NCBI RefSeq assembly: GCF_030142075.1
Contig: NZ_CP126241.1
Coordinates: forward strand, 1,240,001-1,304,000
Source of the DNA: Arthrobacter sp. zg-Y20
GTDB taxonomy: Bacteria; Actinomycetota; Actinomycetes; Actinomycetales; Micrococcaceae
DNA length: 64,000 nt
Direction of reading: 5' to 3'
Shown here: one piece after another, positions 25,933 to 35,608 of the stretch
How the letters are laid out: every line of letters begins with the position of its first letter
Numbering within the stretch: the first letter of the stretch is position 1
Notes under the pieces: model-generated
What the model was told of the DNA's origin: nothing
What the model saw: the letters and a program-made list of their open reading frames with translations, nothing else
Database searches by the model: none
Made by a program: the position numbers and the translations under genes

Positions 25933-26013
25933 GGCACGTCCTCCCAGTGGGGGACGGCAGCCAGTGACTTTTCCTGGGTGGTCACGGTTTGCGTTGCGGC
26001 CCGCAGAGTGGGG

Positions 26014-26280
26014 CTTCGCTCGGTGCAGGGAACCCGCACCCTTTTGCGCCGAAAGGGTTCCCCTCCACCTCGCTTCGCTCGGTGCAGGGAACCCGCACCC
26101 TTTTGCGCCGAAAGGGTTCCCTCCACCTCGCTTCGCTCGGTGCAGGGAACCCGCACCCTTTTGCGCCGAAAGGGTTCCCCTCCACCTCGCTTCGCTCGGT
26201 GCAGGGAACCCGCACCCTTTTGCGCCGAAAGGGTTCCCCTCCACCTCGCTTCGCTCGATGCAGGGAACCCGCACCCTTTT
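26014..26280. repeat. 59-bp tandem repeat, 4.5 copies, with internal hairpin
   Basis: Units start at 26014, 26073, 26131, 26190 and 26249. The last stops after 32 bases. Unit 2 is one C shorter, and unit 5 has one G-to-A change; otherwise the copies look identical. Each full unit contains GGGAACCC ... GGGTTCCC (8-bp arms) with an inner CCCTTTT/AAAGG complement, so each can form a stem-loop. There are no spacers, so it is not a CRISPR array. Frames read through it on both strands look like repeat artefacts. The array ends 72 bases before the frr start. Confidence 0.92.
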
Positions 26281-26352
26281 GGCTTAGGATGATATTAGAG
26301 TCCGGCCACTGAGCGAGAGTGCTTGGTGGACACTGTTTTTAGAGGAGATACC

Positions 26353-28748: not shown

Positions 28749-30272
28749 TCAGCTTCGAGGCGCACTGCCCGGGCGGGGACGCTCCAGCGGCTCGGGGGTG
28801 TGCAGCCGCGCCAAGAACTTCGCGGCGCCTCCCGGCGTTGAGCCGGCCGTTATCCGGGACACGACCACGGTGACCGCGAAGGCCGCGGGTACCGTCCACG
28901 CCGCCGGTTGTTCAATCCAGGCCGGAATCTGCAGTTCGAGCCTCGGCAGGACGGCGGCAGCCGCCATGGACCCGCCGCACAGCAGCGCTCCGGTCAGCAT
29001 GCCGGCCCCGGCACCGGGCGCAGTGAGCCGGCGCCACCAGATCCCCAGTACCAGCAGCGGGCAAAGCGTGGAGGCGGTGAAGGCGAACACCATGCCGATG
29101 CTGCCCGCGAGGGCCGAGGACTCGGTGAGCAGGGCAATGGCCAGCGGTACGACGGCGGCCAGGACAGCGGAGAGCCGGAACCCGCGGACACTGCCGCGGA
29201 AAAACTCCTGGCTGATCACCCCGGCGAGGGATACGGTGAGCCCGCTGCTGGTGGACAGGAACGCGGCAAACGCACCGGCCGTGACCAGCGCTGCCAGCAG
29301 ATCCCCGGTGGCTCCGTCGAAAACACGTCCGGGCAGCAGCAGCACGGCTGCGTCCGTGGCGCCGGCGTCGGCGAGATCCGGTGCGTAGATCCGCCCCAGT
29401 ACGCCGAAGGTGATGGGAAAAAGGTAGAACAGGGACAGCAGCCCCAGCACGATCATGGTGGTGCGGCGGGCGGACGCGCCGTCGGGGTTGGTGTAGAAGC
29501 GCACCAGCACATGAGGCAGTCCGAGCGTGCCGCACAGCAGGGCGATGCTCAAGGAAATGTTCCGGTAGAGCGGGGCGTGGGTCTGCGGGTCCAGTGCTTC
29601 AGCCAGCACCGCTGCGCCGTCCGGGCCGGGCGGCCCGTCGCCGGCGAGCCGGAAGAGGATGAACAGCACCGGAACGGCGATCGCCACCAGTTTCAGCCAG
29701 TACTGGAACGCCTGGACGAAGGTGATGGAGCGCATCCCGCCGGTCACCACGCTCAGGCAGACGACGCCGGTCACGGCCAGGCAGCCGATCTCCGCCGGCA
29801 GTCCGGTGGTGATCCGGATGGTCAGCGCCGCGCCGTGCAGCTGCGGGACGATGTACAGCCAGCCGATGGCGATCACCAGCAGGCTGGTCAGGCGCCGCAC
29901 AGGCAGGGACTCCAGCCGGGCGGAGGCAAAGTCCGGGACCGTGTAGGCCCCGGACCGGCGCAGCGGTGCGGCCACAAACAGCAGGAGCATCAGGTATCCG
30001 CCGGTGTAGCCGATGGGAAACCACAGGGCGTCGACGCCGGAGGCCACTATCAGCCCGGCCACGCCCAGGAAGCTGGCAGCGGAGAGGTACTCGCCGCCAA
30101 TGGCCGAGGCGTTCCACCAGGGCTTGACGGTGCGGGAGGCAACGTAGAAGTCGCTGGTGGTCCGGGAAATCCGCAGCCCGTAGAACCCGATCAGCAGGGT
30201 CGCCGCGGCCACCGCGGCCAGCGCCGTGTAGCCGATGCCCGGACTCATGCCCGGGGCGATGTCCCAGCTCAC
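28749..30272 (-). CDS. SSS-family sodium/solute symporter (ActP-like)
   Basis: A 507-residue, roughly 13-helix sodium:solute symporter. Family marks include GEYLSAASFLGVAGLIVASG near the start, the TVPDF segment with an intact inner core, and LPHVLVRFYTNPDGASARRTT. It resembles the acetate/monocarboxylate branch, like the ActP encoded divergently at 33327, but is clearly a different protein. The start is GTG at 30272, overlapping the stop of the upstream small membrane-protein gene by four bases (GTGA). It is the last gene of a minus-strand operon HK, LytTR regulator, small membrane protein, symporter. The substrate is probably a short carboxylate; this is inference. Confidence 0.87.
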   Translation of the reverse strand: MSWDIAPGMSPGIGYTALAAVAAATLLIGFYGLRISRTTSDFYVASRTVKPWWNASAIGGEYLSAASFLGVAGLIVASGVDALWFPIGYTGGYLMLLLFVAAPLRRSGAYTVPDFASARLESLPVRRLTSLLVIAIGWLYIVPQLHGAALTIRITTGLPAEIGCLAVTGVVCLSVVTGGMRSITFVQAFQYWLKLVAIAVPVLFILFRLAGDGPPGPDGAAVLAEALDPQTHAPLYRNISLSIALLCGTLGLPHVLVRFYTNPDGASARRTTMIVLGLLSLFYLFPITFGVLGRIYAPDLADAGATDAAVLLLPGRVFDGATGDLLAALVTAGAFAAFLSTSSGLTVSLAGVISQEFFRGSVRGFRLSAVLAAVVPLAIALLTESSALAGSIGMVFAFTASTLCPLLVLGIWWRRLTAPGAGAGMLTGALLCGGSMAAAAVLPRLELQIPAWIEQPAAWTVPAAFAVTVVVSRITAGSTPGGAAKFLARLHTPEPLERPRPGSAPRS

Positions 30273-30724
30273 CGGCCCTCCACCAGATCGCGGTAGCGGT
30301 TTTCGTTGCGCTGGGCACTGAGCATGTAGAGCAGCCCGCAGCCGATCACCAGCGGGTACACCCCCACGCCCAGCAGGATCCATGGGGCCGGGATGCCGCC
30401 GATATGCAGGTCGGCACTCACCGGAAGGAAAGCAAGGAGCACGGGAACGCCCAGCAGGATCAGCAGGAACCCTCCGCCCACCACCAGGGCCAGCCGCAGC
30501 TGGCTGCGGATCAGCGAGCCGATAATCAGTTCACCCACTTCGGACTGTTCATCCAGTTCCCGGGACACGGGGAAAGGCGCAGCCCCGGGGGAGGCGCCGG
30601 CGGCAGTGACACGGATCCGCGGCGGGGCAGGGTCGGCGTGCTCAGGTGCCGAGCCGTCAGGCGCAGCCCGGTCAGGCGCCGACCCATCAGGCACAGCCCG
30701 GTCCGGGGCGGCTCCGGCGGTCAC
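30269..30724 (-). CDS. Small membrane protein paired with SSS symporter
   Basis: A 151-residue protein. The first 60 residues are a low-complexity Ala/Pro/Asp region with repeated APDRA and PDGSAP units. Then come a charged helix (LDEQSEVGELIIGSLIRSQLR) and two membrane helices separated by a short loop, with a charged C-terminus (SAQRNENRYRDLV). Its position immediately before a symporter and its two-helix layout match the DUF485-type or similar small partner subunits of ActP-like carriers. The GTG start overlaps the LytTR regulator stop by four bases, and its own stop overlaps the symporter start by four. Function is inferred only from context. Confidence 0.7.
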   Translation of the reverse strand: MTAGAAPDRAVPDGSAPDRAAPDGSAPEHADPAPPRIRVTAAGASPGAAPFPVSRELDEQSEVGELIIGSLIRSQLRLALVVGGGFLLILLGVPVLLAFLPVSADLHIGGIPAPWILLGVGVYPLVIGCGLLYMLSAQRNENRYRDLVEGR

Positions 30725-31458
30725 TGGGCGGGCCTGACCCGGCCGGCGTCGAGTGTGTTCCGCACGGCAGGCAGATGCCGCCGGCTGACCGGCAGGTCCA
30801 CCTCGCCCAGCTGCACACTGGCCCGGCCGCCGGCCAGCCGCACCTGGCGGATGTGGTTCCGGGCCACCAGATAGGACCGGTGGATCCGCACGAAGCCCGC
30901 CCCCGACCACTGTTCCTCCAAATCCGCCAGGGGGACCCGGATCAGGTAGCTGGCATCGGTGGTGTGCAGGCGGGCGTAATCGCCCTGCGCCTGGACGTAG
31001 CGGATGTCGGCGCGGGCAATGATCCGTGTGGTAGCGCCCTGGACCACGGTCACCATGTCGGCCTCGGCCTCCGGTTCAGTGACCGATTCGCAGATCCGGC
31101 GCACGGATTCCGCAAGCCGTTCCGGCCGCACCGGCTTGAGCAGGTAATCCAGGGCGGCCAGGTCAAAGGCCCGCAGTGCCTGGTCTTCGTCGGCCGTCAC
31201 GAACACCACCGCCGGTGGCCGTTCCCGCTGGCCCAGCGCTTTGGCAATGTCCAGGCCGGACAGGGCGGGCATATGGATGTCGAGGAACACGGCGTCGACG
31301 TCGCGGGTGGAGATCTCGTGAAGGGCTGCCGCGCCGCTGGCGGCCCGGTAGACCGTGCCCACCCGGGAGTCCAGGCCGAGCAGGTAGGCGAGCTCCTCGA
31401 CGGCGGGGGCTTCGTCGTCTGCCACCACAACGCTGAGGGGGCGGGGAGGTTTGCGCAT
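30721..31458 (-). CDS. LytTR-family response regulator
   Basis: A 245-residue response regulator. The receiver domain (residues 8-125) has acidic pair Asp14-Asp15, phospho-acceptor Asp60 in VFLDIHMPALSG, Thr88 and Lys108 in YLLKPV. The LytTR DNA-binding domain covers residues about 140-240, with RYVQAQGDYARLHT, LEEQWSGAGFVRIHRSYLV and LPVSRRHLP. Proteins of this kind bind pairs of 9-bp direct repeats, and such a pair lies upstream of this operon (32795-32824). It is encoded 10 bases after the cognate histidine kinase. The closest functional analogues are BtsSR and YpdAB of E. coli, which control carboxylate uptake. Confidence 0.92.
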   Translation of the reverse strand: MRKPPRPLSVVVADDEAPAVEELAYLLGLDSRVGTVYRAASGAAALHEISTRDVDAVFLDIHMPALSGLDIAKALGQRERPPAVVFVTADEDQALRAFDLAALDYLLKPVRPERLAESVRRICESVTEPEAEADMVTVVQGATTRIIARADIRYVQAQGDYARLHTTDASYLIRVPLADLEEQWSGAGFVRIHRSYLVARNHIRQVRLAGGRASVQLGEVDLPVSRRHLPAVRNTLDAGRVRPAQ

Positions 31459-31468
31459 GCGATACAGA

Positions 31469-32680
31469 TTACGCGTTGGTGGGCCGGTTCTCCGGCTGCG
31501 ACTTCGGCACACGCATGGTGATCAGGGTGCCGGCGCCGGGCGCCGTGTCGATGACCAGGCCGTGCTGCCCGCCGTAGACCTGCCGCAGCCGCACATCAAC
31601 GTTGCGCAGGCCTACATGGTCCCCGTCGGCATGCCCGGCCAGGACGGAGCGCAGATGGACCGGGTCCATCCCCACCCCGTTGTCCTCAATGGTGATCACC
31701 GCGTCCGCACCGGCGTCGACGGCGGCAATGGTGATGCGGCCCTGCCCGTCCTTGGCCTCCAGCCCGTGGCGGACCGAGTTTTCCACCAGCGGCTGCAGGG
31801 ACAGGAACGGAATGACGGTGCCCAATACCTCCGGGGCAATCTGCAGGCTGACCTTCAGGCGCTCCCCGAACCGGGCCCGCTCCAGGAGCAGGTACCGGTC
31901 CACGGATTCCAGTTCCTCGGCAATGGTGGTGAAGTTCCCGTGCCGGCGGAAGGAATAGCGGGTGAAGTCGGCGAACTCGACCACCAGCTCCCGGGCGCGC
32001 GCCGGGTCGGTGTTGATATAGGAGGCGATGGCGTTGAGCGAGTTATAGATGAAGTGGGGGCTGATCTGGGCCCGCAGGGCCCGCACTTCTGCTTCCATTA
32101 GCTGCGCCCGGGACGTGTCCAGCTCGGCCAGCTCCACCTGGGTGGCCAGCCACGCGGCCACCTCGTTGGCCGCCCGGACCAGTCCGGCCCGGACCGAGGG
32201 GGCAAACACCGCGACCGTTCCCACGGTCTTTCCGTTGACCGGCAGCGGGGAGACAAGCAGTTCCCGCCCGCAGTCCTGCAGGCCCAGCGCGCGCAGCGCC
32301 GCCCCGCGGAACACCCGGGTCCGGCCCGATTCCAGCACCAGCCGCGCGGCGGACAGCAGCCGTTCGCGGCGGGCCGGAGTATCCGCAACTGCGCCGTCCC
32401 AGGCCAGTACGGCCACCGCGTCGGTAATGACCAGCGTGTCGCAGTCCAAAAGGTCCCGCAGGTGCCGGCTCGCCTTGCGGGCACCGGCCGGAGTCAGGCC
32501 CGAGCGCAGGTGTGCAGAGGCGAGCGACGCCGTGTGCAGGGTGGCGTAGGTGGCACGCTCCGCGTCCGAACCCAGGTCCCGTGCCGAGCGGCTGAGGCGG
32601 AAACCGAGCACGGCCACCACTGCAACCGTCAGGACGGCGACGGCGCAGACCAGGGCAATGTCGACGGCGGGGCTAAGCAT
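31469..32680 (-). CDS. LytS-type sensor histidine kinase
   Basis: A 403-residue kinase. One N-terminal membrane helix (residues 8-28) is followed by a GAF-like sensor region (about 45-180). The His-kinase domain has the phospho-acceptor His209 in AQISPHFIYNSLNAIASYI. The ATPase domain carries the N-box LQPLVENSVRHGLE and the G-box IEDNGVGM. Only one helix is present, unlike the multi-helix 5TM-LYT input of LytS/BtsS, so the signal may be sensed in the cytosol by the GAF-like domain. It is the first gene of the operon with the LytTR regulator and an SSS symporter. Confidence 0.9.
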   Translation of the reverse strand: MLSPAVDIALVCAVAVLTVAVVAVLGFRLSRSARDLGSDAERATYATLHTASLASAHLRSGLTPAGARKASRHLRDLLDCDTLVITDAVAVLAWDGAVADTPARRERLLSAARLVLESGRTRVFRGAALRALGLQDCGRELLVSPLPVNGKTVGTVAVFAPSVRAGLVRAANEVAAWLATQVELAELDTSRAQLMEAEVRALRAQISPHFIYNSLNAIASYINTDPARARELVVEFADFTRYSFRRHGNFTTIAEELESVDRYLLLERARFGERLKVSLQIAPEVLGTVIPFLSLQPLVENSVRHGLEAKDGQGRITIAAVDAGADAVITIEDNGVGMDPVHLRSVLAGHADGDHVGLRNVDVRLRQVYGGQHGLVIDTAPGAGTLITMRVPKSQPENRPTNA

Positions 32681-32794
32681 GGACCCACCCTAGCGGCCCC
32701 CGGCGTCAACCCGGCCGGCCAGCCGGCCAGCCGCCCGCGCGCCCCCGCCCGCCCCCCCGGCCCCCCGCACCCGGCTTACCCGGCGCCGAACGCT

Positions 32795-32824
32795 GCCGTT
32801 CACCGCACGGAACGCACCGTTCAC
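32795..32824. promoter_or_regulatory. LytTR-type direct-repeat operator
   Basis: Two 9-mers, GCCGTTCAC (32795-32803) and ACCGTTCAC (32816-32824), are separated by exactly 12 bp. The arrangement of two direct 9-bp repeats with a 12-13 bp spacer and a GTT-N-A core is the published recognition form for LytTR regulators. The first repeat matches seven and the second eight of nine consensus positions. It lies between the kinase operon (minus) and the DUF485-ActP pair (plus). Confidence 0.65.
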
Positions 32825-32871
32825 CGACGCCCGGCGGCGTCGTGCAGACGATCCGGACCGGCCTGTAGGAA

Positions 32872-32887
32872 AGTGATGAGCGTCACA
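32872..32887. promoter_or_regulatory. CRP/GlxR-type palindrome upstream of DUF485-actP
   Basis: AGTGATGAGCGTCACA matches the TGTGA-N6-TCACA consensus at all but the first base. It lies 72 bases before the DUF485 start, as expected for cAMP-dependent control of a carboxylate transporter. Confidence 0.65.
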
Positions 32888-32958
32888 GCTTGCACGGCGT
32901 CGTGTCCCGGCCTCTTGGCGGGTCAACGCGTGGAGCGTGCCCCAACAGAGGAGGAACA

Positions 32959-33330
32959 ATGGCTGAAGAGCAGCCGGTTTCACACGCTGCGCACCCGGAG
33001 CAGGTGGACTTCCGGGAAGTCCAGAGCTCACCCGAGTTCCGGGAACTGCGCCAGCGCCAGCGCAGCTTCATTTTCCCGATGGCCGTGGCCTTCCTGGTCT
33101 GGTACTTCGCGTATGTGCTGCTGGCCGATTACGCGCACGGGTTTATGTCCACCCCGGTAATCGGCAACATCAACATGGGCCTGATCCTGGGGCTGCTGCA
33201 GTTCGTCAGCACCTTCGGCATCACCATGTGGTACGTCAGCTATGCCAACCGCCGGATGGATCCCATTTCCTCGGAGATCCGCGGAGAACTTGAGGCCAAG
33301 GGCGTCAGCCGGCCGGAGGAGACCAAGTGA
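32959..33330 (+). CDS. DUF485 family membrane protein, ActP partner
   Basis: A 123-residue protein with a polar N-terminus and two membrane helices: FIFPMAVAFLVWYFAYVLLA and a second around residues 72-95. The motif SPEFRELRQRQRSFIFPMA is typical of DUF485 (YjcH family). YjcH is encoded directly upstream of ActP in many bacteria and is thought to assist the symporter. The ATG has GAGGAGG just upstream. The stop codon overlaps the GTG start of the symporter gene by four bases. Confidence 0.93.
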   Translation: MAEEQPVSHAAHPEQVDFREVQSSPEFRELRQRQRSFIFPMAVAFLVWYFAYVLLADYAHGFMSTPVIGNINMGLILGLLQFVSTFGITMWYVSYANRRMDPISSEIRGELEAKGVSRPEETK

Positions 33331-35592: not shown

Positions 35593-35608
35593 TGTGAGTA
35601 GGGTCACA
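35593..35608. promoter_or_regulatory. CRP/GlxR-type palindrome upstream of bkd operon
   Basis: TGTGAGTAGGGTCACA has both perfect consensus arms TGTGA and TCACA with a 6-bp centre. It lies 89 bases before the E1alpha start, between the Lrp regulator and the operon. Confidence 0.7.

What the first reader, a model, noticed from the sequence alone, without database searches (positions are those of the whole stretch)
32681..33330. Divergent promoter with a LytTR direct repeat and a CRP/GlxR site between two symporter operons
Two 9-bp repeats GCCGTTCAC and ACCGTTCAC with a 12-bp spacer (32795-32824) have the layout known for LytTR regulators, and a LytTR regulator is encoded right beside them. A CRP-type palindrome lies at 32872-32887. 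One side drives kinase, regulator, small membrane protein and SSS symporter; the other drives DUF485 and ActP. This looks like one carboxylate-sensing unit controlling two different SSS carriers, comparable with E. coli BtsSR/YpdAB but with a single-helix, GAF-like sensor.
Basis: partly seen in the sequence, partly recalled or inferred. Interest (0 to 1): 0.7.

Follow-up and report, generated by a model that had tools for sequence, protein, structure and literature searches.

The report
Conserved switch for a monocarboxylate importer
A short doubled DNA sign beside a sensor kinase and its partner regulator in an Arthrobacter-like bacterium is conserved in many actinobacteria in front of genes that import small organic acids, which points to a widespread and apparently undescribed acid-uptake control system resembling E. 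coli's pyruvate-sensing one.

Summary
The repeat is real: GCCGTTCAC-N12-ACCGTTCAC at 32795-32824, the only perfect site in the 3.53-Mb genome, beside its only LytTR gene. All six genes recur in 77 of 80 related loci; the repeat is in all 80 intergenics examined (window plus 79), reading towards DUF485-mctC. Across 394 Actinomycetes genomes a strict form occurs in 151 of 202 with this kinase and 31 of 192 without; the reversed-pattern control differs little. Where gene order differs, the repeat mostly stays with mctC (14 of 18 loci) or lies before other carboxylate carriers. mctC promoters of kinase-less genomes: 0 of 20.

So this is a LytS/LytTR-type system for monocarboxylate uptake. The CRP-like palindrome is real, at fixed spacing in 66 of 80, but probably overlaps the promoter core, which suits repression. 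The kinase lacks the BtsS-type 5TM sensor. Binding, activation and ligand are untested.

The parts
32795..32826 (+). LytTR direct repeat: half-sites 32795-32805 and 32816-32826 (11-bp cores, 21-bp period), reading towards DUF485-mctC
32872..32887 (.). CRP/GlxR-type palindrome AGTGATGAGCGTCACA at +77 from the repeat
32869..32874 (+). tentative -10 element (GAAAGT, form NANNNT), overlapping the palindrome; inference from the A two bases before the palindrome, invariant in 66 of 66 loci
   Evidence: conservation; assignment inferred
32959..33330 (+). DUF485 small membrane protein, first gene of the target operon
   Evidence: PF04341, 123.3 bits
33327..34952 (+). MctC-type monocarboxylate carrier (SSS family)
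   Evidence: NF058657, 915.7 bits, cut-off 670
31469..32680 (-). His_kinase-type sensor kinase (HK), one N-terminal hydrophobic helix, GAF-like domain about residues 69-183
30721..31461 (-). LytTR response regulator (RR), the only LytTR gene of the genome
30269..30724 (-). small membrane protein SMP, no family match; start uncertain, many relatives begin later
28749..30272 (-). second SSS carrier SSS2, Na2-type Ser/Thr pair kept; probable input partner of the kinase (inference)

Best explanation
[quoted passage not shown] The kinase (one N-terminal membrane helix, cytoplasmic GAF-like domain) phosphorylates the LytTR regulator; two regulator molecules bind the two half-sites on one face of the DNA (21-bp period) upstream of the DUF485-mctC promoter and switch on the monocarboxylate carrier MctC. 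A CRP/GlxR-type protein binds the palindrome over the promoter core and most likely damps it when a preferred carbon source is present. SSS2 with SMP, in the kinase operon, most likely supplies the input, either as a co-receptor touching the kinase or as a scout importer feeding the GAF domain. Shown by sequence: the repeat, its conservation, its co-occurrence with the kinase, its target genes, gene linkage. Inferred: binding, activation rather than repression, phosphorelay, ligand (acetate, pyruvate or propionate class), role of SSS2, sign of the CRP/GlxR effect.
For: Site in all 80 intergenics (window plus 79 loci), recovered with sequence clusters held out; site scores at least 22.6, median 32.0, against at most 12.6 elsewhere in the 79 loci. 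Strict site in 151 of 202 kinase-bearing and 31 of 192 kinase-less Actinomycetes genomes, p=3.5e-33; reversed-pattern control 64 of 202 and 45 of 192, p=0.07. mctC promoters of kinase-less genomes: 0 of 20 above 12.6, best -2.5; of kinase-bearing genomes: 8 of 20. Where gene order differs, 14 of 18 far loci have a site above 12.6 before DUF485 and three have weaker ones. Other genes behind sites include carboxylate carriers of unrelated families: CstA, AceTr, MHS-type MFS. One LytTR gene and one perfect site in this genome. The E. coli BtsR site before yjiY/btsT has the same form, ACCGCTTAC-N12-ACCACTCAG (oligonucleotide table of PMC4847170, passage). SSS2 occurs with the kinase in 112 of 114 genomes, MctC in 177 of 216.
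Against: No binding or expression data. 51 of 202 kinase-bearing genomes lack the strict site. One far locus (L143) keeps the six genes without a recognisable site and three have weak ones. Twelve of 20 mctC promoters sampled from kinase-bearing genomes are at or below 12.6, five of them (L205-L209) with nothing like a site. Of 20 further site places that I picked, 6 lie before no clear carrier (L172, L176-L178, L181, L182); of 14 sites examined, 10 show no clear carrier, among them strong ones (L144 29.8, L157 26.4, L130 second site 20.7, L158 20.4; scores). ACC(G/A)CT-type repeats also occur at other LytTR proteins' sites (PMC6193735, passage), so likeness to the BtsR site does not prove common descent of the circuit. 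The GAF match of the window's own kinase is weak (E=0.22).
Confidence: 0.78

Rival explanations
1. One reading: one divergent control region in which the same site drives both DUF485-mctC and the kinase-regulator-SMP-SSS2 operon, so that one sensor controls two SSS carriers.
For: The site lies between the two operons in the window and in the 79 near loci. Ten Microbacteriaceae loci have an added inverted half-site facing the kinase gene.
Against: Orientation towards DUF485 in all 80 near intergenics. In co-directional far loci no site above 12.6 before the kinase or SSS2. The distance to the kinase start varies more (39-313 nt, sd 48) than that to DUF485 (120-307, sd 33).
Confidence: 0.2
2. 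SSS2 is simply a second importer, co-transcribed with the kinase and without part in sensing; the kinase senses through its GAF domain or membrane helix alone.
For: SSS2 keeps a Na2-type Ser/Thr pair (T343 in 109 of 109, S342 in 106 of 109), so it probably transports. The kinase has a GAF-like domain of its own.
Against: SSS2 is with the kinase in 112 of 114 genomes while MctC is with it in 177 of 216; HK, RR, SMP and SSS2 lie in one fetched stretch in 35 of 40 far loci, MctC in 18.
Confidence: 0.4
3. The regulator represses mctC from the repeat, or the CRP/GlxR-type protein is the activator and the LytTR site only modulates it.
For: CRP-type palindrome at fixed spacing in 66 of 80; sequence alone does not give the sign of control.
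Against: The palindrome is absent in 13 of 80 loci that keep the repeat. In L025, L026 and L071-L073 the ribosome site starts 6-12 nt after it, an unlikely place for an activator. BtsR is reported to activate its target (PMC10653868, abstract in the listing).
Confidence: 0.12
4. The repeat is a chance match or belongs to an unrelated regulator.
For: Within the window alone a loose pattern is not significant.
Against: Co-occurrence with the kinase gene and absence from kinase-less mctC promoters; held-out recovery in 80 of 80.
Confidence: 0.02

Closest known systems
BtsS/BtsR-BtsT (and YpdA/YpdB-YhjX) of E. coli
   Same: LytS-type kinase with GAF, LytTR regulator, paired ACC(G/A)CT-type half-sites with 21-bp period, very few targets, target a monocarboxylate carrier; some relatives here carry the site before a CstA-family gene, the family of BtsT.
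   Different: No 5TM-5TMR_LYT domain found; main target is MctC (SSS family); an SSS carrier and a small membrane protein are in the kinase operon. The catalytic-core residues are invariant among 55 homologues, whereas BtsS is reported not to be autophosphorylated (PMC5431176, passage).
RpuS/RpuR-MctP of Sinorhizobium fredii, with CrbS/CrbR and CbrA/CbrB (SLC5/STAC kinases)
   Same: An SLC5/SSS protein tied to a kinase that controls pyruvate or acetate use; direct repeat in the target promoter (PMC9100948, passages).
   Different: There the SLC5 part is fused to the kinase and the regulator of the RpuS and CrbS systems is LuxR-type; here they are separate proteins of the His_kinase/LytTR kind.
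MctC of Corynebacterium glutamicum
   Same: Same carrier family (NF058657 cut-off met).
   Different: C. glutamicum, one of the control genomes, gave no LytTR match; control of mctC by RamA/RamB there is recalled, not checked.
LytTR Regulatory Systems (LRS, such as HdrRM and BrsRM)
   Same: Repeats of the same 9-N12/13-9 form, also in Actinobacteria (PMC6193735, passage).
   Different: LRS pair a LytTR regulator with a membrane inhibitor (passage); that they have no kinase or receiver domain is recalled. Here there is a kinase and a receiver domain.

Membership tests
LytTR response regulator | receiver plus LytTR DNA-binding domain | tested here: met
   PF00072 75.8 bits (cut-off 30.2), PF04397 74.4 bits (cut-off 22.6)
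LytTR response regulator | paired 9-11 nt repeats separated by 11-13 nt at the target | tested here: met
   definition from a passage of PMC4847170
LytTR response regulator | regulator binds the repeat | not testable with these tools
   needs gel shift or footprint
BtsSR/YpdAB (LytS/LytTR) | 5TM-5TMR_LYT domain in the kinase | tested here: not met
   not among the 20 families matched by 55 homologues at E<=1; definition from PMC5552118 passages
BtsSR/YpdAB (LytS/LytTR) | GAF domain before the His_kinase domain | tested here: met
   41 of 55 homologues at E<=1, best 9.4e-7; window protein E=0.22
BtsSR/YpdAB (LytS/LytTR) | NCBIfam BtsR equivalog cut-off | tested here: not met
   136 bits against 246, although the best-scoring family
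BtsSR/YpdAB (LytS/LytTR) | one or few target operons | tested here: met
   one perfect site in the genome; functional targets not testable here
BtsSR/YpdAB (LytS/LytTR) | pyruvate as stimulus | not testable with these tools
   needs ligand binding or expression assays
MctC monocarboxylate transporter | NF058657 cut-off | tested here: met
   915.7 against 670
ActP acetate symporter | TIGR02711 cut-off | tested here: not met
   478.1 against 1099.25
SLC5/STAC histidine kinase | SLC5 domain fused to the kinase | tested here: not met
   separate genes in the window and in the loci
SLC5/STAC histidine kinase | STAC domain | tested here: inconclusive
   no STAC match in the Pfam or NCBIfam scans of SSS2 or the kinase; whether those libraries hold a STAC model was not checked
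CRP/GlxR site | TGTGA-N6-TCACA consensus, conserved position | tested here: met
   9 of 10 consensus bases; GTGA-N6-TCAC near +77 in 67 of 80 loci
CRP/GlxR site | bound by the CRP-like protein | not testable with these tools
   a CRP-like gene is present (L121); needs a binding assay

The most novel reading that the evidence does not exclude
SSS2-SMP and the single-helix GAF kinase form a split transporter-sensor: a multi-protein actinobacterial counterpart of the fused SLC5 kinases (CbrA, CrbS, RpuS) that arose in the LytS/LytTR lineage, in which an Na+-coupled carrier reports a monocarboxylate to a kinase that then induces MctC, or in other genomes CstA, AceTr or MHS carriers. The kinase is in about half of the sampled Actinomycetes genomes (202 of 394).
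Probability: 0.38. Interest if true: 0.75.

Novelty: new variant of a known kind. Interest (0 to 1): 0.55.

Why it matters
It assigns a probable target set, DNA motif and physiological role to a LytTR system whose kinase is in 202 of 394 sampled Actinomycetes genomes and that I did not find described (searches; open-licence PMC texts only). In Streptomyces coelicolor a review lists SCO1217 as an orphan kinase and SCO1220 as an orphan LytTR regulator (PMC9739842, table passage); the RR-SMP-SSS2-kinase order of four loci here (L132, L139, L145, L163) suggests, as inference, that they are one system. It also offers a separable carrier/kinase pair in which to test whether a transporter acts as a sensor.

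Tried and rejected
Chance: rejected. Membership in the BtsSR family: not claimed (no 5TM domain found, equivalog cut-off missed). A CstA target in this genome: its one cstA (L184) has no site (best score 0.4). Literature on an actinobacterial LytTR-symporter system: nothing found. In PMC3293853 (passages) the SCO1220-SCO1221 region was tested for ArgR binding with an unclear or absent shift; not pursued. In one search one control region scored 25.7; one search shows that the only high-scoring places outside the nominal interval are the main sites of L071 and L085, which lie at other coordinates, so the control most likely caught one of those; one search repeats the control with the true interval excluded (maximum 12.6; there the matrix was trained on all sites). 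The SSS2 count at E<=1e-80 misses genomes in which an insertion splits the alignment (G101, the genome of L132, is missing from it although L132 holds SSS2), so 112 of 202 is a lower bound. In one search the second set is labelled mctC away from HK; the kinase position was listed for only some of these genomes, so read it as kinase-bearing genomes. A -35 element could not be fixed. Loci are related to each other, so counts of loci are not counts of independent events.

Full report
What is there. The two 9-base repeats and the CRP-like palindrome are at the stated places. The minus-strand operon encodes a His_kinase/HATPase_c kinase (HK), a receiver-LytTR regulator (RR), a small membrane protein without a family match (SMP) and an SSS symporter (SSS2); the plus strand encodes DUF485 and an MctC equivalog. 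The window lies in a 3.53-Mb genome of one contig whose nearest named relatives are Arthrobacter species (93% kinase identity: zg-Y769, zhaoxinii, yangruifuii, zg-Y238).

Conservation. MctC, DUF485, HK and RR are together in 79 of 80 (not L084, titled Nonomuraea); SMP and SSS2 as well in 77, the other two (L025, L085) having short stretches that stop after RR. The HK-DUF485 intergenic regions of the window and the 79 loci all give a best match to RCCGYTYRNCG-N10-RCCGYTYRNCG reading towards DUF485. Tests: the RCCGYT pair is at +21 in 52 of 80, at +20 in 12, and at any other spacing listed in at most 5, against a mean of 0.04 at +21 in 200 first-order Markov runs; with each of 26 sequence clusters held out in turn the top position is the same site in 80 of 80; sites score at least 22.6 (median 32.0), while the rest of the 79 loci never exceeds 12.6. 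The loci are related, so these are not 80 independent events.

Specificity. The genome has one LytTR domain and one perfect site; the two 1-mismatch sites are at control level. In 120 genomes of the family a strict pattern is in 25 (once in 23 of them, twice in two), and its reversed control in 5; this strict form misses many true sites (one search shows the spread). In 394 Actinomycetes genomes the kinase (E<=1e-25) is in 202 and a slightly different strict pattern is in 182: 151 of 202 with and 31 of 192 without the kinase (p=3.5e-33); the reversed pattern is in 64 of 202 and 45 of 192 (p=0.07). Some of the 31 are 7-base tandem repeats, visible. I then fetched 20 mctC promoters from the 39 genomes that have MctC but no kinase match: none has the site (best score -2.5). 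Of 20 from kinase-bearing genomes 8 exceed 12.6, several more show weaker pairs, and five (L205-L209) show nothing like it. Three of those five genomes (G328, G265, G382) carry the site before a CstA gene (L175, L174, L129); the other two were not examined.

Target. In 40 stretches that I chose from other genomes of the class, for variety of family, DUF485-MctC lies near the kinase in 18, in 15 of them co-directionally after SSS2. In 14 of 18 a site above 12.6 lies about 165-300 bp before DUF485; L125, L147 and L151 have weaker ones and L143 none. No site above 12.6 lies before the kinase in the co-directional loci. Elsewhere sites precede CstA-family genes (L129, L165, L174, L175, L180; 822-847 bits), GPR1/FUN34/YaaH acetate carriers (L130, L135; L130 also meets the AceTr_1 cut-off) and MHS-type MFS carriers (L164 and L168 by Pfam, L164 also by NCBIfam, just under the cut-off of TIGR00883; L166, L167, L170, L171 by likeness). 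L154 has a weak site (10.7) before a further SSS carrier. Against this: of the 20 places that I picked, 14 lie before a carrier (four of them DUF485-mctC) and 6 do not; of 14 sites examined, four lie before a carrier and 10 do not clearly, some of these strong by score (L144, L157, L158, second site of L130). The E. coli BtsR site in a published oligonucleotide has the same form (PMC4847170, passage), but so have sites of other LytTR proteins (PMC6193735, passage).

Which symporter does what. SSS2 (E<=1e-80) is in 114 of 394 genomes, 112 of them with the kinase (the other two, G014 and G060, are 72% and 78% complete); MctC (E<=1e-130) is in 216, 177 of them with the kinase (p=5e-6 for the difference). 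HK, RR, SMP and SSS2 lie within one fetched stretch in 35 of 40 far loci. In L132, L139 and L145 the SSS2 and HK reading frames overlap by a few bases, with start codons chosen by script. SSS2 keeps the Ser/Thr pair at the Na2 position (T343 in 109 of 109, S342 in 106 of 109), while MctC has Ala-Val there in 98 of 98 (SiaT numbering and residue roles are recalled, the MctC-5NV9 alignment is), so the two carriers probably differ in coupling ion. I read this as SSS2 serving the kinase's input and MctC being its output; the first half is inference.

Promoter. GTGA-N6-TCAC lies at +76 to +78 from the repeat in 66 of 80 loci and at +83 in one (0.08 expected); it is absent in 13: ten Agromyces/Microbacterium, two Cryobacterium, one MAG. 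The A two bases before it is invariant (66 of 66) though outside the palindrome, and in L025, L026 and L071-L073 the ribosome site starts 6-12 nt after it. This suggests that the promoter core lies under the palindrome, a repressing position; the transcript start is not known. GlxR acts as an activator of cytochrome genes in C. glutamicum (PMC7026483, passage); GlxR repression of glyoxylate genes is recalled. A CRP-like gene is present (L121: cNMP_binding 95.5 bits; best NCBIfam match CRP, 117.5 against a cut-off of 266).

Sensor. GAF matches in 41 of 55 kinase homologues at E<=1 (best 9.4e-7; window protein 0.22), and no 5TM-5TMR_LYT is among the 20 families matched. Hydropathy finds one segment in the first 40 residues in 114 of 120 homologues; 61 of the 120 have one or two further segments that I did not assign. 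BtsS and YpdA carry the 5TM domain plus GAF, and BtsR and YpdB each control one gene in E. coli (PMC5552118, passages). The ligand is unknown.

Noticed in passing
L075-L082, L085, L086 intergenic, for example L075:5839-5849: In these ten Agromyces/Microbacterium loci the second half-site is followed by GACGAGCGGC or GACGAACGGC, an inverted third half-site facing the kinase gene; possible lineage-specific autoregulation.
   Followed up: partly
window 35593-35608: A second CRP/GlxR-type palindrome, TGTGAGTAGGGTCACA, between an Lrp/AsnC gene and a dehydrogenase E1-alpha gene that meets an NCBIfam pyruvate dehydrogenase cut-off.
   Followed up: no
window 26013-26281: Tandem array of a 59-bp unit, 4.6 copies, 98% matches.
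   Followed up: no
L166:1879-1931: Three half-sites in 21-bp register before an MHS-type MFS gene.
   Followed up: no
L021, L073: Contigs titled Vibrio cholerae 35D and Sporosarcina beigongshangi carry the same locus as the Arthrobacter contigs; probably mislabelled or contaminated assemblies.
   Followed up: no
L157, L158: A second kinase-regulator pair in two large genomes has a strong site 90-117 bp after the regulator gene, without SSS2 or MctC found in the stretch (L157 ends at a contig end); target unidentified.
   Followed up: partly
L176-L178: A match to the site is conserved in three genomes of one genus with no convincing gene behind it; possibly it lies inside a coding gene on the other strand.
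   Followed up: no
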